Shown: in pieces, positions 21,358 to 30,780 of the stretch
Numbering within the stretch: position 1 is the first letter of the stretch
Layout of the letters: every line of letters begins with the position of its first letter
Origin: Halococcus saccharolyticus DSM 5350
GTDB taxonomy: Archaea; Halobacteriota; Halobacteria; Halobacteriales; Halococcaceae
Direction: 5' to 3'
Length of the DNA stretch: 64,000 nucleotides
NCBI RefSeq assembly: GCF_000336915.1
Contig: NZ_AOMD01000020.1
Span: 1 to 64,000, forward strand
Program-made: the position numbers and the translations under genes
The notes under the pieces: model-generated
What the model was told of the DNA's origin: nothing
What the model saw: the letters and a program-made list of their open reading frames with translations, nothing else
Database searches by the model: none

Positions 21358-22419
21358 ATGCTCGTCGACGGATTCGGTCGGGAGGTTTCGGGGGTGCGTG
21401 TCTCCCTAACTGATCGCTGTAATTTCGACTGTGTCTACTGCCACAACGAAGGGCTCGGCGACACGCGCGGCCCGATGGAGCCCGCCGAGAACGAGATGGG
21501 TACCGAAGACGTCGTTCGGTTCCTCGAAGTCGCAAGCGAATTCGACGTCGAGAAGGTCAAGTTCACCGGCGGCGAGCCGATGCTCCGCGACGATCTGGAG
21601 GAGATCGTCCGCCGGACGCCCGACGATATGGAGACCTCGCTGACGACCAACGGGACCTTCCTACCGGGTCGCGCGGAGGGGCTGCGGGAAGCGGGCCTCG
21701 ATCGCGTGAACGTCTCTCAGGACGCTATCGACAGGGAAGCATTCGCCGAGATCACCGAGTCCGGTGCGTACGAGCGCGTCCTGGAGGGCGTCGAGGCGGC
21801 ACTCGATGTCGGGCTCGACCCCGTGAAGCTCAACATGGTGGTGTTCGAGGGCACAGTAGAATTCATCCCGGAGATGGTGGAGCACGTCGCGGCGAACTCC
21901 GGGCTCCAGCTCCAGCTCATCGAGTACATGCCCGAGATCGCGGGCCACCCCGAGTGGGCGATCGATATCGAACGAGTCCACGACTGGCTCGCGGAGCGTG
22001 CCGATCGGATCGAACACCGCGAGATGCACGATCGGCGGCGCTACTGGGTGAACGGTGGTGACGTGAGTAGCGAGGAGCTCCGCTCCTCGGACCGTTCGAG
22101 CGGGCGAAGCCCGCGAGAAGACGAAGCGAGCGGAGCCTCGTCGGACTCGTCCGACGGTGGGATGGTGGAGATCGTCGATCCCGTCGGCAACGAAACCTTC
22201 TGTGCGAACTGCCACCGGGTGCGAGTCACTCACGAAGGGTATCTCAAGGGCTGTCTCAACCGGAACGACGACCTCCGGTCGATGGGCGAGATGACCAGGG
22301 ACGAGATCCGCGACGCGTTCCGCGAGGTCGTCCACAACCGGGTGCCGTACTACGGCGAGTACATGATCCGAGACGGTGACGGCGGGTGGGAGGTCAACGA
22401 CGAGTACGTCGGCGCGTAG
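21358..22419 (+). CDS. moaA: GTP 3',8-cyclase MoaA (molybdenum cofactor biosynthesis)
   Basis: A 353-residue radical-SAM enzyme that starts molybdopterin synthesis by rearranging GTP. Cys21, Cys25 and Cys28 in [15 protein letters not shown] bind the SAM cluster; Cys282, Cys285 and Cys299 in the FCANCHRVR and GYLKGC segment bind the second cluster. KFTGGEP is the SAM-binding GGE motif. Residues 235-268 are a Ser/Glu/Asp-rich insertion encoded by three consecutive DNA hairpins, between the otherwise conserved RRRYWVNGG and [10 protein letters not shown] segments. CTTAACC lies about 25 bases upstream. With mobA and the formate dehydrogenase genes it makes a molybdenum island. Confidence 0.94.
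22071..22155 (+). repeat. Triple-hairpin palindromic element inside moaA
   Basis: Three perfect hairpins follow each other: CGAGGAGC-tcc-GCTCCTCG (22071-22089), GCGGGC-gaa-GCCCGC (22100-22114) and GTCGGA-ctcg-TCCGAC (22140-22155). They encode a Ser/Arg/Glu/Asp-rich stretch that MoaA does not need, so the element appears to have been inserted without breaking the frame. The first hairpin is a GC-rich type seen scattered in haloarchaeal genomes; I could not check for other copies. Confidence 0.65.
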
Positions 22420-22477: not shown

Positions 22478-23107
22478 TTATTCGGCCTGGTCGGCGAATC
22501 GATCGGTGAGCGCCGCGATCTCCGCGCGCGTGTTGACGTTCGTGAGCGTCGCCGTGTCGGCGTGTTCGCGCAGTTCTTGCTCCTCGATCACGACGCGATC
22601 GAGATCGGCCACCGCCGCAGTGACTCGGCGTTCGTCCCGCGAGAGCGCCGCCGCACAGGCATCGGCCGTCGCATCGACGCGATAGACTGCCTGCAGCGGC
22701 TGGAGGCGGCCGTCGGATCGGGGAATCGCCGCATCGTGGCCGGCGGCCCGATCGAACAGATGCGAGACGAATCTCGGATCGACGAGCGGCATGTCGGCAG
22801 CGACGACGGCCGCATACTCGATCGCGGGCTGTTCGGCTCGGACGAAATCGAGCCCGGTTCGGATGCCGGCTGCTGGGCCGCGATCGGGATCGGTGTCGGT
22901 GGTGTATCGTGCGTCCAACCCCGCGAGCGCCGTCGCGATGGCGTCCATCTGGTCGGTCCGGCAGTTGACGACGAGTGTATCGACGACACCTGCGAGACGG
23001 TCGGCGACCCGGCGGATCATCGGGACGTCCGCGAGGTCGGCGGTGACCTTGTCCCGATCGCCGAACCGCATCGAGCGTCCGCCTGCGACGATGACGACAG
23101 CACGCAT
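22478..23107 (-). CDS. mobA: Molybdenum cofactor guanylyltransferase
   Basis: A 209-residue nucleotidyltransferase. The N-terminal VVIVAGGRSMRFGDRDK (about residues 4-20) is the MobA/IspD GTP-binding signature, followed by DMPLVDP about residue 98, the metal-binding aspartate region. It attaches GMP to molybdopterin, the form used by formate dehydrogenases of the DMSO reductase family, such as the two nearby. Bacterial MobA is about 190 residues. I start at the ATG at 23107 because the signature begins there; longer in-frame starts add unrelated residues. Convergent with moaA and divergent from the DUF1931 gene. Confidence 0.87.
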   Translation of the reverse strand: MRAVVIVAGGRSMRFGDRDKVTADLADVPMIRRVADRLAGVVDTLVVNCRTDQMDAIATALAGLDARYTTDTDPDRGPAAGIRTGLDFVRAEQPAIEYAAVVAADMPLVDPRFVSHLFDRAAGHDAAIPRSDGRLQPLQAVYRVDATADACAAALSRDERRVTAAVADLDRVVIEEQELREHADTATLTNVNTRAEIAALTDRFADQAE

Positions 23108-23203
23108 CGGTGACCGTTCGTCGTGGGCACGCATCAACGTGTCCCGCAACGTCGTACAGCCGACCGACCGAAGTCGTTCTACTTCCACTCCGCTTCGATA
23201 GGA

Positions 23204-23209
23204 TATAAG
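23204..23209 (+). promoter_or_regulatory. TATA box of the DUF1931 gene
   Basis: TATAAG in the context GGATATAAGT lies 26 bases before the ATG at 23236, the expected spacing for a leaderless haloarchaeal transcript. Confidence 0.6.
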
Positions 23210-23235
23210 TACGAATCGCGACGAGTAGAGCACGT

Positions 23236-23559: not shown

Positions 23560-25134
23560 ATGGCAACGCCCAAGGGTGCGATCGGCAACGGACCAGTCGT
23601 TCGTGTTGCGATCGGTGGCGATCACGACGCCGGCCCCGAACTCCTCCGTGCGGCCCGTGATGCGACCGAGGACGTTCGCGTCGTCGCGGTCGGGCCGACC
23701 GGTGCTGACTCGCTCGCGCCGCTCGTTCTCGCGACGCAAAACGGTACAACGGCGTTCGTTCCACAGTGTACCGTCGCGAACGTCACGACGATCGTCGAAA
23801 CCCTCGAGAACGGATCGCTGCCCGACACGGCGGCGACCGTCGAGCACGATCCGGGGGCGACGAGCATGCCGACACCGCCGGCAGCGATCGACACGACGGC
23901 GGTGCTCGGCGTGGGATCGCGCCGTGTGCTCGGGGGCTGTGGCTGGCGAGCCCCCGCAAGCGTCGCGGACTACCGCGTCTCGCGCGACGACGAACTCCTC
24001 GCCGAGCGTGCGATCGACGATCCCGACGCGGTTCACGAGCGGGTCGCGGACGCCGCGCTCCGTGGCCGCGGTCGAGGCGACGGCAGCACCGACGCACCGA
24101 TATCGGGGGTGTGGACGACCGCGACCGAGACCGACGGCAAGCCAGTCGTGGTCGTGAACGCGAACGAGGCCGACGATCACGCGCGCGCCGATCGACTCTT
24201 GCTCGAAAGCGCGCCGCTCGCGGTGCTCGATGCGGCGCTCGCGACGGCCCACGCCGTCGACGCGACCGACGTGCTCGTCTACACCAACGACGCCGAGGCA
24301 CTCGCGAGGGAGCGGGCACAGGAGGCGGCGGACGCGCTCGCCGCCGACCGCGATCCCGACATTCCGATTCAGGTCGTCGCCGGGCCGGATGCATACACTG
24401 CGGGCGAGATGACGATGGCGCTCGAAGCCATGGAGGGCAACGACCGGCTCGAAGCCAGACGCCGGCCGCCCGGTCCCGATCAGTACGGGCTGTACGGCCG
24501 ACCGACGGTGATCCACACCCCGCGGACGTTCGCCCAGGTCGGGCAGGCGCTCGCCGATAACGATCTCGGCGGCGTCCCCGGTGATCCGGGCACCCGACTG
24601 TTCACCGTGGCCGGCGACGTCGACGCACCCGCGACGATCGAACTGCCAACCGACGCGACGCTCGCCGATGTTCGCGGTGCGGTCGCGCTCGACGGCGGGC
24701 TGAAGACCGCGTGTGTCGGCGGCCGATTCGGCGGACTGACCCGCGATCTCGACGTCCCGGCGAGCGCTGCCGGGCTTCGGGGTGCGCGCCTCGGGACGAA
24801 CGGTGTCATCGAGCTGTTCGACGAGTCAACCTGCACGGTGGCGCTCGCCGGCCAGCGAGCGAAACTCGCGCGCGAGGAGAACTGTGGCCGATGTGTGCCC
24901 TGTCGCGAGGGGTCGAAACAGCTCGTCGAACTCCTGCGCGACGTGTACGACGGCGAGTATCAGGACGGGATGCTCCGCGAGCTCGCCCGCACCATGCGCG
25001 AGACCAGCACCTGCGAGTTCGGCCAGGAAGCGTCGAGACCGGTGACGACTGCGATGGAGTCCTTCGAGCCCGAGTTCCGCGCCCACGCCGACGGGCGCTG
25101 TCCCAGCGGTTCCTGCGATCACGTTTCATCATGA
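23560..25134 (+). CDS. Divergent NuoF/HoxF-like subunit (FdhB-type) of a formate-dehydrogenase-like complex
   Basis: A 524-residue protein with the NuoF/HoxF order: thioredoxin-like domain (about 13-90), FMN/NADH region (about 150-320), SLBB domain (345-430) and the 4Fe-4S helical domain with Cys442, Cys445, Cys448, Cys485 (NCGRCVPCREG and TCEFG). The thioredoxin-like part has no cysteine at the usual 2Fe-2S positions: GGDHDAG and VGPTGAD replace them. In the FMN loop the GRGGAGF pattern is reduced to LRGRGRGDG. NANEAD and AGEMTMAL keep some of the FMN/glutamate positions. NAD use is therefore doubtful. Overlaps the next gene by 4 bases. Confidence 0.8.
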   Translation: MATPKGAIGNGPVVRVAIGGDHDAGPELLRAARDATEDVRVVAVGPTGADSLAPLVLATQNGTTAFVPQCTVANVTTIVETLENGSLPDTAATVEHDPGATSMPTPPAAIDTTAVLGVGSRRVLGGCGWRAPASVADYRVSRDDELLAERAIDDPDAVHERVADAALRGRGRGDGSTDAPISGVWTTATETDGKPVVVVNANEADDHARADRLLLESAPLAVLDAALATAHAVDATDVLVYTNDAEALARERAQEAADALAADRDPDIPIQVVAGPDAYTAGEMTMALEAMEGNDRLEARRRPPGPDQYGLYGRPTVIHTPRTFAQVGQALADNDLGGVPGDPGTRLFTVAGDVDAPATIELPTDATLADVRGAVALDGGLKTACVGGRFGGLTRDLDVPASAAGLRGARLGTNGVIELFDESTCTVALAGQRAKLAREENCGRCVPCREGSKQLVELLRDVYDGEYQDGMLRELARTMRETSTCEFGQEASRPVTTAMESFEPEFRAHADGRCPSGSCDHVSS

Positions 25135-26090
25135 GCACTGACCAATCTTCCACCCCACGCGTCCCGGACGTCGAGAACCCACAGCCGACAATGCCGCTGA
25201 CCGAGGACATCAGACCGGGGACGGCGAACGATCCACCGGTCGAGACCGTCGAACCCGATCGAACCGCGACGCTCACCGTCGACGGCGAGTCGGTCACAGT
25301 GTCGGCCGAGTCGACCCTGCTCGACGCCACCGAGGAGACCGACACCGACGACTACGTGCCCGCGCTGTGTTCGTACGACGAGCATGACGAGATCGGCCCA
25401 CGAAGCGAGTGTCGGACGTGTATGGTCGAAACCGAAGAACACGGCGTCGTGCCGTCGTGTAGCTTCCCCGCTCAGGACGGGATGACCGTCCGCACCGACA
25501 CGACGGAGGCGAGCGAGGCCCGTGACGTCAACCTCGATCTGCTCCTCTCGAATCACAACCTCCGGTGTACGACCTGCGGAAAGAACGGCCGGTGTGAACT
25601 CCAGGACGTCTCGATCGAGAACGACGTGGTCGAACCCCGGTATGGGGTGTTCGACGACCGCGACGCCTACGAACCGCTCGACGATTCGTCACCCTTCATC
25701 CAGATCGACCGCAACAAGTGTATTCTCTGTAATCGGTGCGTCGAGGCGTGCAACGACGTCCAGGTCGAGGGCGTGCTTCGGATCGAGGGATCGGGCGAGG
25801 ACACCCGGATCGGGTTCCAGAACGATGCGGAGACGATGATGGACTCGACGTGTGTCTCGTGTGGCCACTGCGCGACAGTGTGTCCGACGGGCGCGCTCGT
25901 CGAGCAGGGGCTTACCGACGCGGCGACCATCCCGCTGCCCGGGTTCACCCAGGAGAACTCGATCGGCAAGACCGTCGAGGCCGAGAACGACCGGTTCCAG
26001 CCCGGCCCCGCAACGCCGATGAAAGGCGATCAGAAAAGCGAGTCAGCCGCCGAACCGACCGCCGAATCGCCACCAACGGAGGACGACTGA
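25131..26090 (+). CDS. Iron-sulfur subunit (NuoG/FdhA N-terminal type)
   Basis: A 319-residue ferredoxin-type protein holding four clusters in order: a 2Fe-2S site (Cys80, Cys94, Cys97, Cys110), a His142-Cys146-Cys149-Cys155 4Fe-4S site, and two classical 4Fe-4S sites (Cys197/200/203/207 and Cys241/244/247/251). In FdsA and other formate dehydrogenases this is the N-terminal third of the catalytic subunit; here it is a separate gene. It should wire the molybdenum site to the NuoF-like subunit. Starts inside the previous stop (ATGA) and ends 2 bases before the catalytic gene. Confidence 0.9.
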   Translation: MSTDQSSTPRVPDVENPQPTMPLTEDIRPGTANDPPVETVEPDRTATLTVDGESVTVSAESTLLDATEETDTDDYVPALCSYDEHDEIGPRSECRTCMVETEEHGVVPSCSFPAQDGMTVRTDTTEASEARDVNLDLLLSNHNLRCTTCGKNGRCELQDVSIENDVVEPRYGVFDDRDAYEPLDDSSPFIQIDRNKCILCNRCVEACNDVQVEGVLRIEGSGEDTRIGFQNDAETMMDSTCVSCGHCATVCPTGALVEQGLTDAATIPLPGFTQENSIGKTVEAENDRFQPGPATPMKGDQKSESAAEPTAESPPTEDD

Positions 26091-26092
26091 TC

Positions 26093-28471
26093 ATGTCCGG
26101 CAAACCCACCAGTGGGTCCGATACGAGTGACAGCTCCGATACCGAAAAAGAGGGCGTTGCGGGCTTCATGTCCCGTGCGCGCGAGCAGGCTCAGCAGGGG
26201 ATGGCGAGCGCAACCGAGAGCGACGCGTTCGCGTCGGTCGAACACGCCGTCGAGGGCGTCGCCGCGAACACGATGTCGGAGGGGCGGCTGTTCGACGTTG
26301 CGGACGCGCTCAGCGACTACCGACTCAACGAGGTCGACGTCACCGACACCACCTGCGGCTACTGTGCGGTCGGCTGTCGGTTCGACGTCTACTCGAAGGA
26401 CGGTGAGGTCCTCGGAACGCGGCCGAACCCGGAGAAAGCCCCGATCAACGGTATCTCGACCTGTGTGAAGGGGAAGTTCAGCTACGGGTTCGCAAACAGC
26501 GACGACCGACTGACCCAGCCGCTCGTAAAGGACGAGGGAGAGTTCCGCGAGGCGTCGTGGGACGAGGCGCTCTCACGAGTGAAGGAGGGGCTCGAAGGGA
26601 TTCAGGAGGAGTACGGCCCGGACGCGCTCGGTCTGGTGGCGTCCTCGAAGGCGACCAACGAGGACAACTACGTGATGCAGCGGTTCGCCCGCGAGGTGCT
26701 CGGGACCAACAACATCGACAACTGCAACCGGCTGTGTCACGCCGCGACCGTCGAAGGGCTCTCGGACACGCTCGGCTTTGGGGCTGCCTCGACCGGTCTC
26801 GCCGCGCTCGAAGACACCGACTGCTACGTGCTCGTCGGCTCGAACACCACCGAGGCCCACCCGGTGTTCGGGACACGGATCAAACAGAACGTCCGGGACG
26901 GCGCGGACCTGCTCGTCTTCGATCCCCGAAAAACGCAGATTGCGGAGTACGCCGACCAGTTCACCAGGATCGAACCCGGCTACGACACGACGTGGATCAA
27001 CGGGATGATCCGGTACATCCTCGCGGAGGACCTCCACGACGAGGCGTTCATCGAGGAGCGCGTCGACGGGTTGGAGAAGATCAGGGAGAGCGTCCAGCAG
27101 TTCACGCCCGAGTTCGTCGAGGAGAAAGCGGGCGTCCCGCCCGAGGAGCTGAAGAGTGCGGCAGAGACGATCGCTACCGCCGACTCGTGCATGTTCGGCT
27201 GGACGCTCGGGCTGGTCGAGCACTCCCACGGAACCGACAACATCTACGCGATCGCGAACCTCGCGCTGATCACGGGCCACGTCGGCCACCCGAAGGGCGG
27301 ACTCAGTCCGTTCCGCGGTCAGAACAACGTCCAGGGTGGCGGCGGCGACATGGGGCCGCTCCCCAACAACTTCCCGGGCTACCAGCCGGTGACCGACGAG
27401 GAGAACCGCGAGAAGTTCGCCGATCGGTGGCAGATGGATCTCGACCAGATGCCCGCCGAGGAGGGCTACCGCCTGACAGAGATGTTCCTCGCCGCCGACC
27501 AGGGCGATCTCAGAGGGATGTTCATTCAGGGAGAGAACCCTCAGATCTCGGAACCGAACATCGGCCACGCGACGGAAGTCCTCGAAGAGCTGGAGTTCCT
27601 CGCGGTTCAGGACATCTTCCTCACCGAGACCGCCGAATACGCCGACGTGGTGCTCCCGGCGACCTCGACCGTCGAGTCAAACGGGACGTACACGAGCTCG
27701 TCCCGCCACGTTCAGCTCGTCAAGCGCGCCATCGAGCCGAACGGCGAGGCGAAAGAAGACTGGGAGATCACGCAGGCGCTCGCGAAACGCTTCGGCTACG
27801 ACTGGGGGTTCGACTCGCCGTCGGATATCATGGACGAGATCGCGGACCTGACACCGATCTACGGTGGGATCAGTCACGAACGCCTCGAAGAGGAAGGTGG
27901 ACTCCAGTGGCCGTGTCGGAGCGAGGACGACCACGGCACACCCTATCTCTACGCCGACGAGTTCCGGGCGGTCGAGGGGAGCGAGAAGGCACAGATGCAC
28001 GTCGCCGACGCGATCGAACCCGGGGAGACGCCCGACGAGGAGTTCCCGCTGGTGATGACCTCTGGACGAGTCCTCTACCAGTACCACACCGGCACGATGA
28101 CGCTCCGAGAGGAGGGGCTCGATGCGTACTCCGCCGAGAGTTTCGTCGAGATCAATCCCGAGACCGCGGCGGAGTACGGCGTCGCCGACGGCGAGACCGT
28201 CACGCTGACCTCGCGTCACGGAACGACCGAGATGCGCGCCGACATCACCGATCGCCCGAGTCCGGGCGAGGTGTTCGTCCCGATGCACTACCTCGAAGGT
28301 GGGGCGAACAACCTGACCAAGGAGGAACCGCTCGACGGACCGAGTCGCGCGCCCGAGTTCAAGGTCACCGATGTCGAGGTGACGCTGGAGAATGAACCGA
28401 CGGACGACGAGCGATCACCCACCGAAACTGACTCCGGAAGCGACGAACGACCGGCAGCGTCGGACGACTGA
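26093..28471 (+). CDS. fdhA: Molybdopterin oxidoreductase, formate dehydrogenase alpha-like
   Basis: A 792-residue DMSO-reductase-family enzyme. One 4Fe-4S site is Cys88, Cys91, Cys95, Cys124 with the conserved Lys in CVKGK. RLCHAATVEGL holds Cys215, the molybdenum-ligating position (selenocysteine in E. coli FdhF), followed by the conserved His. LSPFRGQNNVQG with GGGDMGPLPNNFPGY is the formate-dehydrogenase signature around the active-site arginine. The C-terminal third binds the second pterin. It probably oxidises formate to CO2 in the cytoplasm, having no export signal. The N-terminal Fe-S domain of longer family members is encoded by the preceding gene. Confidence 0.88.
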   Translation: MSGKPTSGSDTSDSSDTEKEGVAGFMSRAREQAQQGMASATESDAFASVEHAVEGVAANTMSEGRLFDVADALSDYRLNEVDVTDTTCGYCAVGCRFDVYSKDGEVLGTRPNPEKAPINGISTCVKGKFSYGFANSDDRLTQPLVKDEGEFREASWDEALSRVKEGLEGIQEEYGPDALGLVASSKATNEDNYVMQRFAREVLGTNNIDNCNRLCHAATVEGLSDTLGFGAASTGLAALEDTDCYVLVGSNTTEAHPVFGTRIKQNVRDGADLLVFDPRKTQIAEYADQFTRIEPGYDTTWINGMIRYILAEDLHDEAFIEERVDGLEKIRESVQQFTPEFVEEKAGVPPEELKSAAETIATADSCMFGWTLGLVEHSHGTDNIYAIANLALITGHVGHPKGGLSPFRGQNNVQGGGGDMGPLPNNFPGYQPVTDEENREKFADRWQMDLDQMPAEEGYRLTEMFLAADQGDLRGMFIQGENPQISEPNIGHATEVLEELEFLAVQDIFLTETAEYADVVLPATSTVESNGTYTSSSRHVQLVKRAIEPNGEAKEDWEITQALAKRFGYDWGFDSPSDIMDEIADLTPIYGGISHERLEEEGGLQWPCRSEDDHGTPYLYADEFRAVEGSEKAQMHVADAIEPGETPDEEFPLVMTSGRVLYQYHTGTMTLREEGLDAYSAESFVEINPETAAEYGVADGETVTLTSRHGTTEMRADITDRPSPGEVFVPMHYLEGGANNLTKEEPLDGPSRAPEFKVTDVEVTLENEPTDDERSPTETDSGSDERPAASDD

Positions 28472-28476
28472 CATCC

Positions 28477-28746
28477 ATGAGTCTCACACACCGACTCAAG
28501 CGGCTGGCGGGGATCGCAAGCGACGAAACCGGCGTCGAAAGCTCGCGCGAGCGAACGCTTCGGGAGTGTACCGTTTGTGGTGAGCGGTTCGACAGCGAGG
28601 CGACCACCTGCCCGGACTGTGGGAGCCGGATCAGCCGGACGAAGACGGTCGTGCCGCACGCACTCTTCAATCTGGTCGTGGTGCTCGCCGTGACCGGCCT
28701 CCACGTCGTTCGGAACGTTCTCGCGGGCGACATCCCGAAGGAGTGA
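28477..28746 (+). CDS. Zinc-ribbon membrane protein between two molybdoenzymes
   Basis: An 89-residue protein with a zinc-ribbon-like knuckle pair (CTVCGERFDSEATTCPDCG, about residues 32-50) and one transmembrane segment near the C-terminus (HALFNLVVVLAVTGLHVV). It starts 5 bases after the formate dehydrogenase stop, so it is part of that operon. It could anchor the complex to the membrane or take part in its assembly; no known family was recognised. It looks specific to this locus and deserves a search. Confidence 0.78.
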   Translation: MSLTHRLKRLAGIASDETGVESSRERTLRECTVCGERFDSEATTCPDCGSRISRTKTVVPHALFNLVVVLAVTGLHVVRNVLAGDIPKE

Positions 28747-28791: not shown

Positions 28792-30780
28792 ATGAGCGAG
28801 GAGCGCATCGACGAACGGACCGAAACCACCTGTCCGCGGTGTGCGGTCGGGTGCAGCCTGCGGTACGACGAGGGGACCGGCCGCGCGACCGGGATCGAGG
28901 GCGCACGCGTCAATCGTGAGGGGCGGCTCTGCCCGAAGGGAATCGCGGCGTTCGAGGATCTCGACGAAGATCGACTGACCGCCCCGCTGGTGCGCCGCGA
29001 CGGTAATCTCGAACCCGTTTCGTGGGAAGAAGCGCTCGATTGTGTCACAAATGGGATCGAGCGGGTCCGCGAACGTTACGGGCCGGACGCAATCGCCTTC
29101 CTCGGCGCGCCGCGGTGTACCAACGAGGAGAACTACCTCCTTCAGAAAATCGCGCGCTCGCTCGGCACCAACAACGTCGACAACCGCGCGCGGAGCTGTC
29201 ACGACGCGACCGCAGAGGCGATGGAAACACGACTCGGCTCGGGCGGGACCACCAACAGCCTCGACGATCTCGCCGAGGCGGACGCCTTCCTCGTCGTGGG
29301 CGCGAACCCGGCCGAGCGCCAACCGATCGCGTTCGATCGGTGTGTCCGCCCGGCGGTCAACGATGGCGCAGCTCTGCTCCACCTCGATCCGCGGGCGAAC
29401 CGGACGACACGACTCGCGACCCAGCACCTCGCACCACATCCGGGACGCGACGCGCTCACCGTGGCGCTGCTCGCCCGTGCGATTCTCGATATGGGGCTCG
29501 AAGACCGGACATTCATCGCGGAGCGCACGACGGGGTTCGACCAGTTTGTTCGGTCGATGGATCGTTTCGATCTCGCGGCGGACGCCGAGCGAGCCGGTCT
29601 CGACCCCGCGGCGGTGCGCGAGGCGGCCGAGACGTTCGGCGAGGCCGAGCGCGCCGCCGTCGTCACCGGAACGGGGATCGAGGCCGACGAGGGCGCGACC
29701 CCGAACGCGCTGCTCGACCTCCTCCTCGTCACCGGGAACCTCGGCAAGCGCGGCACCGGGATGAACCCCTTCCGGGGACTCGTCAACGAGCAGGGAGCGA
29801 GCGACATGGGTGCGCGACCGGACTGCCTGCCGGGCGAAGCGTCCGTCTCCGATGTCGACGCCCGCGCGCGCGTCGCCGCCGAATGGGGCGTCGAGCCGCC
29901 CGCCGAGCCCGGCGAAGCCGAACCCGATCTCGTCAGAGAGTTCGGATCGGGGGTTCGAGGCGCGTTCGTGCTCGGGGAGAACCCCGCGGTGAACCGACTC
30001 GACGACGCAACCTCGGAGCAGCTGTTCGCCGCTCTCGATTTCCTCGCAGTCCAGGATGTCGCGCCGAACGAAACCACCGCGTTCGCCGACGTGGTGCTCC
30101 CGGCGAGTGCGTGGGCCGAAAAGGAAGGCACCGTGACCAACCTCGATCGGCAAGTCCAGGCGCTACGACCCGCTGCATCGCCGCCAGGACGGGCGCGACG
30201 CGACCTCGACGTTCTCGCCGATCTCGGCGCTCGGCTGACAGACGCCGACTTCAGCTACGACGGTCCGGCAGGGGTGTTCGACGAGATGACACGGATGAAC
30301 CTACTCTACGCAGGGATGGAGTACGAGGAAGTCCTCGATGGCGGCGAACGGTGGCCGCTCCCCGAGGGCGAGAACGAGGGCCAGGACGTCCTCCACCGCG
30401 AGCGGTTCCGGACCGGCCGTCAGCGCGCACCGCTCGAACCGATCGAAGCGGTGGCGAGCGGGGCGGACGCGGACGATCGCGGGCCGGATTTCGAGGAGGG
30501 GCTCGTACTGCTGACCGAAAGTCGCGTCGATGAGGACGCCGGTAGTCCGGCTGCTCGTCGGGAAGAGGCCACGGTGCAGATCAACCCCGTCGATGCCGTC
30601 GCGCGCGACATCGAGGACGGCGCTCAGGTCGCCGTCGAGAGTAGTCGTGGAGTGGTCGAACTCCGCGCTCGTCGCACCGACGCCGTCCGCGAGGGAACCG
30701 TGTTCGCCCATGCAAGCGTCGCGGACCCGCTCGTCGGCAGCGGTCGAACCCAGGTCCGGATCACGGAACTCAGCGAGTAA
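28792..30780 (+). CDS. Second, shorter molybdopterin oxidoreductase
   Basis: A 662-residue DMSO-reductase-family protein resembling the first catalytic subunit. It has a 4Fe-4S site (Cys14, Cys17, Cys21, Cys47; CPRCAVGC and LCPKG), Cys136 in RARSCHDAT at the molybdenum-ligand position, and MNPFRGLVNEQGASDMG, the formate-dehydrogenase-type arginine region. Compared with the 792-residue protein it lacks a long C-terminal acidic tail and several loops. No second Fe-S subunit follows, so it may share the upstream subunits or replace the other catalytic chain. It starts 45 bases after the zinc-ribbon gene. Confidence 0.85.
   Translation: MSEERIDERTETTCPRCAVGCSLRYDEGTGRATGIEGARVNREGRLCPKGIAAFEDLDEDRLTAPLVRRDGNLEPVSWEEALDCVTNGIERVRERYGPDAIAFLGAPRCTNEENYLLQKIARSLGTNNVDNRARSCHDATAEAMETRLGSGGTTNSLDDLAEADAFLVVGANPAERQPIAFDRCVRPAVNDGAALLHLDPRANRTTRLATQHLAPHPGRDALTVALLARAILDMGLEDRTFIAERTTGFDQFVRSMDRFDLAADAERAGLDPAAVREAAETFGEAERAAVVTGTGIEADEGATPNALLDLLLVTGNLGKRGTGMNPFRGLVNEQGASDMGARPDCLPGEASVSDVDARARVAAEWGVEPPAEPGEAEPDLVREFGSGVRGAFVLGENPAVNRLDDATSEQLFAALDFLAVQDVAPNETTAFADVVLPASAWAEKEGTVTNLDRQVQALRPAASPPGRARRDLDVLADLGARLTDADFSYDGPAGVFDEMTRMNLLYAGMEYEEVLDGGERWPLPEGENEGQDVLHRERFRTGRQRAPLEPIEAVASGADADDRGPDFEEGLVLLTESRVDEDAGSPAARREEATVQINPVDAVARDIEDGAQVAVESSRGVVELRARRTDAVREGTVFAHASVADPLVGSGRTQVRITELSE

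What the first reader, a model, noticed from the sequence alone, without database searches (positions are those of the whole stretch)
23560..25134. NuoF-like subunit that has lost Fe-S cysteines and part of the FMN loop
The thioredoxin-like domain keeps the fold pattern but all 2Fe-2S cysteine positions are replaced, and GRGGAGF is reduced to GRGRGDG. The SLBB and 4Fe-4S parts (Cys442/445/448/485) are intact. The complex may pass electrons to something other than NAD, for example ferredoxin or a quinone.
Basis: partly seen in the sequence, partly recalled or inferred. Interest (0 to 1): 0.68.

Follow-up and report, generated by a model that had tools for sequence, protein, structure and literature searches.

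The report
Haloarchaeal formate dehydrogenase with rebuilt NAD subunit
In a large group of salt-loving archaea, the part of formate dehydrogenase that normally hands electrons to NAD has been rebuilt so that it very probably can no longer do so, which suggests these enzymes feed another electron carrier, most likely ferredoxin.

Summary
23560-25134 (+) encodes a NuoF/HydB-type subunit that opens a formate dehydrogenase (FDH) operon in a haloarchaeon, probably Halococcus. All 2Fe-2S cysteines of its thioredoxin-like domain are gone; this is normal in bacterial FdsB. The flavin/NAD loop GRGGxGFPTGxKW is replaced, with four extra residues, by GRG[RW]GDxxxDxPxxxxW. The Lys required for NAD activity in FdsB, the adenine-stacking Phe, the second Glu of GEET and the NN motif are all lost.

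This is not decay in one genome. The same changes are fixed in 112 haloarchaeal relatives, and the replacement residues are among the most conserved in the protein.

The [4Fe-4S] cysteines, intact here, were lost about six or seven times elsewhere. The adjacent NuoG-N subunit keeps its 16 cluster ligands in every lineage. Every genome with this NuoG-N also has the NuoF-like gene (141 of 141).

Best reading: a cytoplasmic FDH whose diaphorase subunit has lost NAD chemistry but is kept as a structural or docking part. Electrons probably leave through NuoG-N to ferredoxin. Loss of NAD function is strongly supported by inference; the acceptor is untested. A rebuilt pocket holding another cofactor is not excluded.

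The parts
23560..25134 (+). NuoF/HydB-type subunit (524 aa) with remodelled FMN/NAD pocket
23596..23844 (+). thioredoxin-like domain without 2Fe-2S cysteines (residues about 13-95)
   Evidence: AF2 secondary structure; alignment
24064..24114 (+). remodelled glycine-rich loop GRGRGDGSTDAPISGVW (residues 169-185)
24157..24174 (+). NANEAD in place of NADEGD (residues 200-205)
24382..24438 (+). GPDAYTAGEMTMALEAMEG in place of GAGAYxCGEETALxxSxEG (residues 275-293)
24502..24528 (+). PTVIHTPRT in place of PTxxNNVET (residues 315-323)
24832..24834 (+). Cys425, putative Zn ligand (HydB-type)
24883..24903 (+). [4Fe-4S] ligands Cys442/445/448 (fourth ligand Cys485 at 25012-25014)
25084..25116 (+). His509...Cys514...Cys519, rest of the putative Zn site; protein ends soon after (no C-terminal 2[4Fe-4S] domain)
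25137..26090 (+). NuoG-N/HoxU-like Fe-S subunit: [2Fe-2S], His+3Cys cluster, 2x[4Fe-4S]; all 16 ligands present
26090..28471 (+). catalytic molybdopterin subunit FdhA (Cys-His and Arg signatures)
   Evidence: TIGR01591 789 bits over cut-off 666
28477..28746 (+). small zinc-ribbon protein with a hydrophobic C-terminal segment, conserved in the window's own clade
28792..30780 (+). second FdhA-like molybdopterin protein
   Evidence: TIGR01591 488 bits, below cut-off
21358..22419 (+). MoaA (GTP 3',8-cyclase), molybdenum cofactor synthesis
22478..23230 (-). MobA-like molybdenum cofactor guanylyltransferase (below the NCBIfam cut-off)

Best explanation
The gene encodes the diaphorase-type subunit of a cytoplasmic molybdenum formate dehydrogenase specific to haloarchaea. 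It descends from a HydB/NuoF-type NAD subunit, but its NAD site has been rebuilt and very probably neither binds nor reduces NAD. Formate is oxidised at FdhA. Electrons run along the clusters of FdhA and the NuoG-N subunit and leave from that chain to a soluble low-potential carrier, most likely a [2Fe-2S] ferredoxin. The NuoF-like subunit is kept as an assembly or docking part. In the window's own lineage it may still carry one extra [4Fe-4S] relay, which several sister lineages have dispensed with. Shown here: the motif changes, their fixation, the repeated ligand losses, the intact NuoG-N chain and the obligate co-occurrence. Inferred: no NAD activity. Inferred and untested: ferredoxin as acceptor and the docking role.
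For: (a) Phe and Lys of the loop, the second Glu of GEET and both Asn of NNVET are replaced in all or nearly all of 112 haloarchaeal sequences. The new residues (R170, G171, D174, D178, P276, E289, R300, H319, T320, R322, T323) are near-invariant. FdsB K157R and K157S are inactive with FMN still bound (PMC10671435). (b) [4Fe-4S] ligand loss needs about 7 changes on the tree, at least 6 forced by starred branches. NuoG-N keeps all 4+4+4+4 ligands in all 77 CCCC rows, all 11 CCGC rows and at least 27 of 28 SCGC rows. (c) The pair is obligate: 156 genomes have a NuoF-type hit, and all 141 with this NuoG-N are among them. (d) FDH clusters with NuoG-N and FdhA but no adjacent NuoF exist (L212, L213, L214, L216); a NuoF-like gene is elsewhere in each of those genomes. 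(e) The partner is an FDH: TIGR01591 over cut-off, with R[LV]CH and SPFRGQNNVQG conserved. (f) This is the only PF10589 protein in the genome. There is no NuoE: the one PF01257 hit lies in a CbiX-like fusion. There is no FrhB. Complex I lacks EFG. Eleven Fer2 places exist. (g) Precedent: a haloarchaeal cytoplasmic Mo enzyme, Nas, uses [2Fe-2S] ferredoxin (PMC2483277).
Against: No biochemistry. If the pocket were empty, its motif need not be so strictly conserved. E283, the flavin-side Glu of GEET, is kept in all CCCC and CCGC rows and lost only within the SCGC clade, in 15 of 25. That suggests pocket and cluster were once functionally linked, as if a ligand were still there in the window's lineage. 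No ferredoxin gene is consistently beside the operon. No FdhD sulfurtransferase was found in the genome, which is odd for an FDH.
Confidence: 0.52

Rival explanations
1. The rebuilt pocket still holds a cofactor, such as FMN or FAD bound in a new way or another nucleotide. Electrons pass from the subunit's [4Fe-4S] cluster to it and on to a non-NAD two-electron acceptor.
For: The new loop motif is near-invariant in 112 sequences rather than degraded. E283 is kept in every CCCC and CCGC row and lost only where two ligands are gone. The window protein has all four cluster cysteines.
Against: Lineages with the same conserved motif but without cluster ligands have no obvious path to the pocket. 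Most FMN-side positions are changed too (NADE, NNVET). No acceptor-specific subunit is present.
Confidence: 0.25
2. It is still an NAD-reducing FDH with an unusual FMN/NAD site.
For: Overall NuoF/HydB fold and PF01512/PF10589 matches. The first Gly-Arg-Gly, N200, Y279 and E283 are kept.
Against: Loss of the essential Lys and adenine-stacking Phe of FdsB (PMC10671435, PMC7171172), of the second Glu and of NN in all relatives. Repeated loss of the cluster that feeds FMN. No NuoE/FdsG partner.
Confidence: 0.09
3. The FDH is attached to the membrane and delivers electrons to menaquinone, with the small zinc-ribbon/hydrophobic protein at 28477-28746 as anchor.
For: The small gene directly follows FdhA in 9 loci of the window's clade.
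Against: It was not found in the other clades, has no heme or quinone-binding family match, and no cytochrome b-type or Hyb/Fdn-type subunit is in the operon.
Confidence: 0.07
4. The molybdenum enzyme is not a formate dehydrogenase but oxidises another substrate.
For: No FdhD homologue in the genome. FdhA partners in some lineages score low (L107, L109, L121, L125, L134). The second FdhA-like gene is below the TIGR01591 cut-off.
Against: The catalytic subunit exceeds the Fdh-alpha equivalog cut-off (789 vs 666) and scores far lower against nitrate reductase models. Cys-His and Arg signatures are conserved, also in the low-scoring partners.
Confidence: 0.07

Closest known systems
FdsB of NAD-dependent formate dehydrogenase FdsABG (R. 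capsulatus, C. necator)
   Same: N-terminal thioredoxin-like domain without a 2Fe-2S cluster, NuoF core with [4Fe-4S], partner of a NuoG-N/FdhA chain (PMC7171172)
   Different: FdsB keeps GRGGAGF..K, GEE and NN, uses FMN and NAD and pairs with FdsG (NuoE-like). The haloarchaeal form has lost these motifs, has no NuoE partner and carries a HydB-type Zn motif that FdsB-like rows lack
HydB / NfnB / StnB (electron-bifurcating hydrogenases and transhydrogenases)
   Same: Best sequence matches, and a conserved Cys-His-Cys-Cys site of the same kind as the 3-Cys 1-His Zn site of T. maritima HydB (PMC9499530)
   Different: No C-terminal 2x[4Fe-4S] domain, no 2Fe-2S in the N-terminal domain, no canonical FMN/NAD residues; the catalytic partner is FdhA
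NuoF of respiratory complex I
   Same: Complex1_51K and 4Fe-4S domains over Pfam cut-offs
   Different: NuoF equivalog TIGR01959 scores 150 vs cut-off 559; it lies in an FDH operon, not with nuo genes
[quoted passage not shown]
   Same: Cytoplasmic Mo-bisMGD enzyme of haloarchaea exchanging electrons with [2Fe-2S] ferredoxin (PMC2483277): functional analogy only
   Different: Single subunit, reductive direction, no NuoG-N or NuoF parts

Membership tests
NuoF / Complex1_51K superfamily | Match to PF01512 and PF10589 over cut-off | tested here: met
   61.2 and 78.3 bits
NuoF equivalog (complex I) | TIGR01959 over cut-off | tested here: not met
   150 vs 558.65 bits
NAD(H)-active diaphorase subunit (NuoF/FdsB/HydB) | Loop GRGGxGFPTGxKW with Phe and essential Lys | tested here: not met
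   Phe and Lys replaced across 112 sequences; 4-residue insertion
NAD(H)-active diaphorase subunit (NuoF/FdsB/HydB) | NADE, GEET and NNVET motifs | tested here: not met
   NANE, GEMT/GEPT, HTPRT
NAD(H)-active diaphorase subunit (NuoF/FdsB/HydB) | FMN bound; NAD reduced | not testable with these tools
   needs purified enzyme
NuoF / Complex1_51K superfamily | [4Fe-4S] ligands CxxCxxC...C | tested here: met
   Cys442/445/448/485 in the window; lost in 37 of the 124 aligned rows
FdsABG-type NAD-dependent FDH | NuoE/FdsG partner | tested here: not met
   No NuoE in operon; only PF01257 hit in the genome is in a CbiX-like fusion
FdsABG-type NAD-dependent FDH | Thioredoxin-like N-terminal domain without 2Fe-2S | tested here: met
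   PMC7171172
HydB/NfnB type | Zn site of 3 Cys + 1 His | tested here: met
   C425, H509, C514, C519 conserved in all CCCC, CCGC and SCGC rows and aligned with HydB-like rows; metal itself not tested
HydB/NfnB type | C-terminal 2x[4Fe-4S] ferredoxin domain | tested here: not met
   Protein ends 5 residues after Cys519
Formate dehydrogenase alpha (partner) | TIGR01591 over cut-off and Cys-His/Arg signature | tested here: met
   789 vs 666 bits
Formate dehydrogenase system | FdhD/FdsC sulfurtransferase in the genome | tested here: not met
   No PF02634 match; the Haloferax volcanii control does not ring either

The most novel reading that the evidence does not exclude
A widespread haloarchaeal class of formate dehydrogenase in which a former NAD-reducing flavoprotein subunit has become an obligate ferredoxin-docking or assembly subunit. 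The enzyme reduces ferredoxin, which then feeds the haloarchaeal complex I that lacks NuoEFG.
Probability: 0.27. Interest if true: 0.75.

Novelty: new variant of a known kind. Interest (0 to 1): 0.52.

Why it matters
Public annotation calls these proteins 'NADH-ubiquinone oxidoreductase-F iron-sulfur binding region' proteins next to 'formate dehydrogenase', which invites the assumption of an NAD-linked enzyme. The sequence data argue against that in about a third of the haloarchaeal genomes sampled. The electron donor of the haloarchaeal complex I, which lacks NuoEFG, is an open question (PMC3403918, where F420 is the speculation). A formate-to-ferredoxin enzyme would give a directly testable donor route. 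The repeated loss of cluster ligands in a subunit that is never lost is also a clean natural case of a redox subunit turning into a structural one.

Tried and rejected
Only the N-terminal fold was used; Foldseek still ranks Nfn/HydB/FdsB first.

NuoE in the genome: the single PF01257 hit is the [2Fe-2S] tail of a CbiX-like protein.

F420 route: no FrhB/FdhB C-terminal domain in the genome.

Conserved electron carrier beside the operon: none; only DUF1641 in one clade and a zinc-ribbon protein in another.

I first took the canonical haloarchaeal NuoF loci (L186-L190) for [FeFe] hydrogenases. Their partner is a NuoG-like protein with a NuoE-like gene, so that was rejected.

An apparent N-terminal extension of NuoF in L077/L078 is Arg-rich run-on reading frame, not a fused domain.

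Defence system: no PADLOC match.

Chance or assembly error: excluded by 112 relatives.

Literature: nine searches found no description of this subunit. That covers open-licence papers only.

Full report
What is there. The gene at 23560-25134 (+) encodes 524 aa. It is followed after two bases by a NuoG-N/HoxU-like iron-sulfur subunit, then by a catalytic molybdopterin subunit whose start overlaps the previous stop, then by a small zinc-ribbon gene and a second FdhA-like gene. MoaA and a MobA-like gene lie upstream. The catalytic subunit exceeds the cut-off of the formate dehydrogenase alpha model (789 vs 666 bits) and keeps the Cys-His and Arg signatures. The genome is a haloarchaeon. The genus is probably Halococcus: a genome labelled 'same genus' (G252) has the matching NuoF gene on a 112,650-base contig, the length of the Halococcus morrhuae contig found independently; this is an inference.

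Checking the observation. The subunit matches the Nuo51 FMN-binding and NADH_4Fe-4S families over cut-off and aligns over nearly its whole length with HydB and FdsB. The four 2Fe-2S cysteines of the thioredoxin-like domain are gone. Bacterial FdsB also has such a domain without a cluster and still works with NAD (PMC7171172), so this alone is ordinary. The flavin/NAD loop is the unusual part: GRGGxGFPTGxKW is replaced by GRGRGDGSTDAPISGVW, with four extra residues and without the Phe and Lys. NADE has become NANE, GEET has become GEMT, and NNVET has become HTPRT. In R. capsulatus FdsB the Lys is essential for NAD activity although FMN remains bound when it is changed (PMC10671435), the Phe stacks the adenine, and Glu259, which the alignment equates with the second Glu of GEET, binds the ribose (PMC7171172).

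Distribution and conservation. Of 392 genomes of the class, 156 have a match and 141 have the NuoG-N partner. All 141 are among the 156, by comparison of the two lists. Of the other 15, two have only fragments, one has a match cut near a contig end, and the other 12 have weaker hits (about 1e-50 to 1e-56). Six of those 12 were examined and carry the canonical motifs. In an alignment of 112 haloarchaeal sequences the new pocket residues are near-invariant: R170, G171, D174, D178, P276, E289, R300, H319, T320, R322, T323. The tree places 114 haloarchaeal sequences on one side of a long branch (2.39 changes per site, SH-aLRT 100; quick method, and the outgroup rows did not form one group). Ten NuoF hits from other classes of the phylum were inspected, and nearly all keep the canonical motifs. 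So this is a fixed rebuild in one lineage, not decay in one genome.

A natural experiment on electron flow. The four [4Fe-4S] ligands, present in the window, are reduced to SCGC in 25 of the 124 aligned rows, to CCGC in 11 and to CSCC in one, needing about seven changes on the tree. The NuoG-N partner keeps every one of its 16 ligands in all 77 CCCC and all 11 CCGC rows and in at least 27 of 28 SCGC rows. In several genomes additional NuoG-N/FdhA pairs exist with no NuoF-like gene beside them, though one is elsewhere in the genome. The likely exit for electrons is therefore the NuoG-N chain, with the NuoF-like subunit kept for another reason. Against a purely empty relic, E283 on the flavin side is kept in all CCCC and CCGC rows and lost only inside the SCGC clade (15 of 25). 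In the window's own lineage a bound ligand cannot be excluded.

Which acceptor. The genome has no NuoE (the single family hit is part of a CbiX-like protein), no FrhB/FdhB domain and a complex I cluster without E, F and G, as reported for haloarchaea generally (PMC3403918). It has several ferredoxin-like genes. Haloarchaeal assimilatory nitrate reductase, another cytoplasmic molybdenum enzyme, works with [2Fe-2S] ferredoxin (PMC2483277). For another haloarchaeon, reduced ferredoxin from cytoplasmic FdhA has been proposed as donor to complex I (PMC5437934). Ferredoxin is therefore the most likely acceptor, but nothing here tests it. No FdhD sulfurtransferase was found, which is unusual for an FDH and remains unexplained.

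Ancestry. The subunit carries Cys425, His509, Cys514 and Cys519 in all relatives counted, matching the HydB/NfnB type and not FdsB. In T. maritima HydB three Cys and one His bind zinc (PMC9499530); I did not check residue numbers against that structure. The haloarchaeal protein stops just after Cys519, so the C-terminal ferredoxin domain of HydB is missing. It reads as a truncated HydB-type subunit recruited to an FDH.

Verdict. Observation confirmed. Interpretation partly supported: the loss of NAD function is well argued from sequence, the new acceptor is open. Limits: no biochemistry, a weak structure model (mean pLDDT 55), and a literature search confined to open-licence papers.

Noticed in passing
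window genome G000: No FdhD (PF02634) homologue in the whole genome although it has at least one bona fide FDH alpha; the Haloferax volcanii control also lacks it.
   Followed up: partly
window 28792-30780 and similar genes in about 20 loci: A second FdhA-like molybdopterin protein follows the FDH in one set of lineages; it keeps RxCH and LRGLxNEQG but scores below the FDH cut-off. Function unclear.
   Followed up: partly
window 28477-28746: Small zinc-ribbon protein with a hydrophobic C-terminal segment directly after FdhA, conserved in 9 loci of the window's own clade only.
   Followed up: partly
L186-L190 (genomes G144, G088, G068, G002, G049): Some haloarchaea carry a NuoE-, NuoF- and NuoG-like trio with canonical NAD/FMN motifs; in L189 and L190 the NuoF has a C-terminal 2x[4Fe-4S] domain. 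It resembles NfnABC/StnABC-type complexes, although haloarchaea are usually said to lack nuoEFG.
   Followed up: partly
L184, L185 (genomes G031, G127): NuoF-like paralogues with no NuoG-N or FdhA nearby and a further degraded pocket, yet the CxxCxxC motif is kept.
   Followed up: no
L212, L213, L214, L216: NuoG-N/FdhA clusters without an adjacent NuoF-like gene; in G330 the NuoF-like gene stands alone elsewhere (L219).
   Followed up: partly
L159-L180 and similar: DUF1641 gene downstream of FdhA in 14 loci of one clade.
   Followed up: no
G146:C3, G386:C1, G329:C23: NuoF-like reading frames split or interrupted: pseudogenes or sequencing errors.
   Followed up: no
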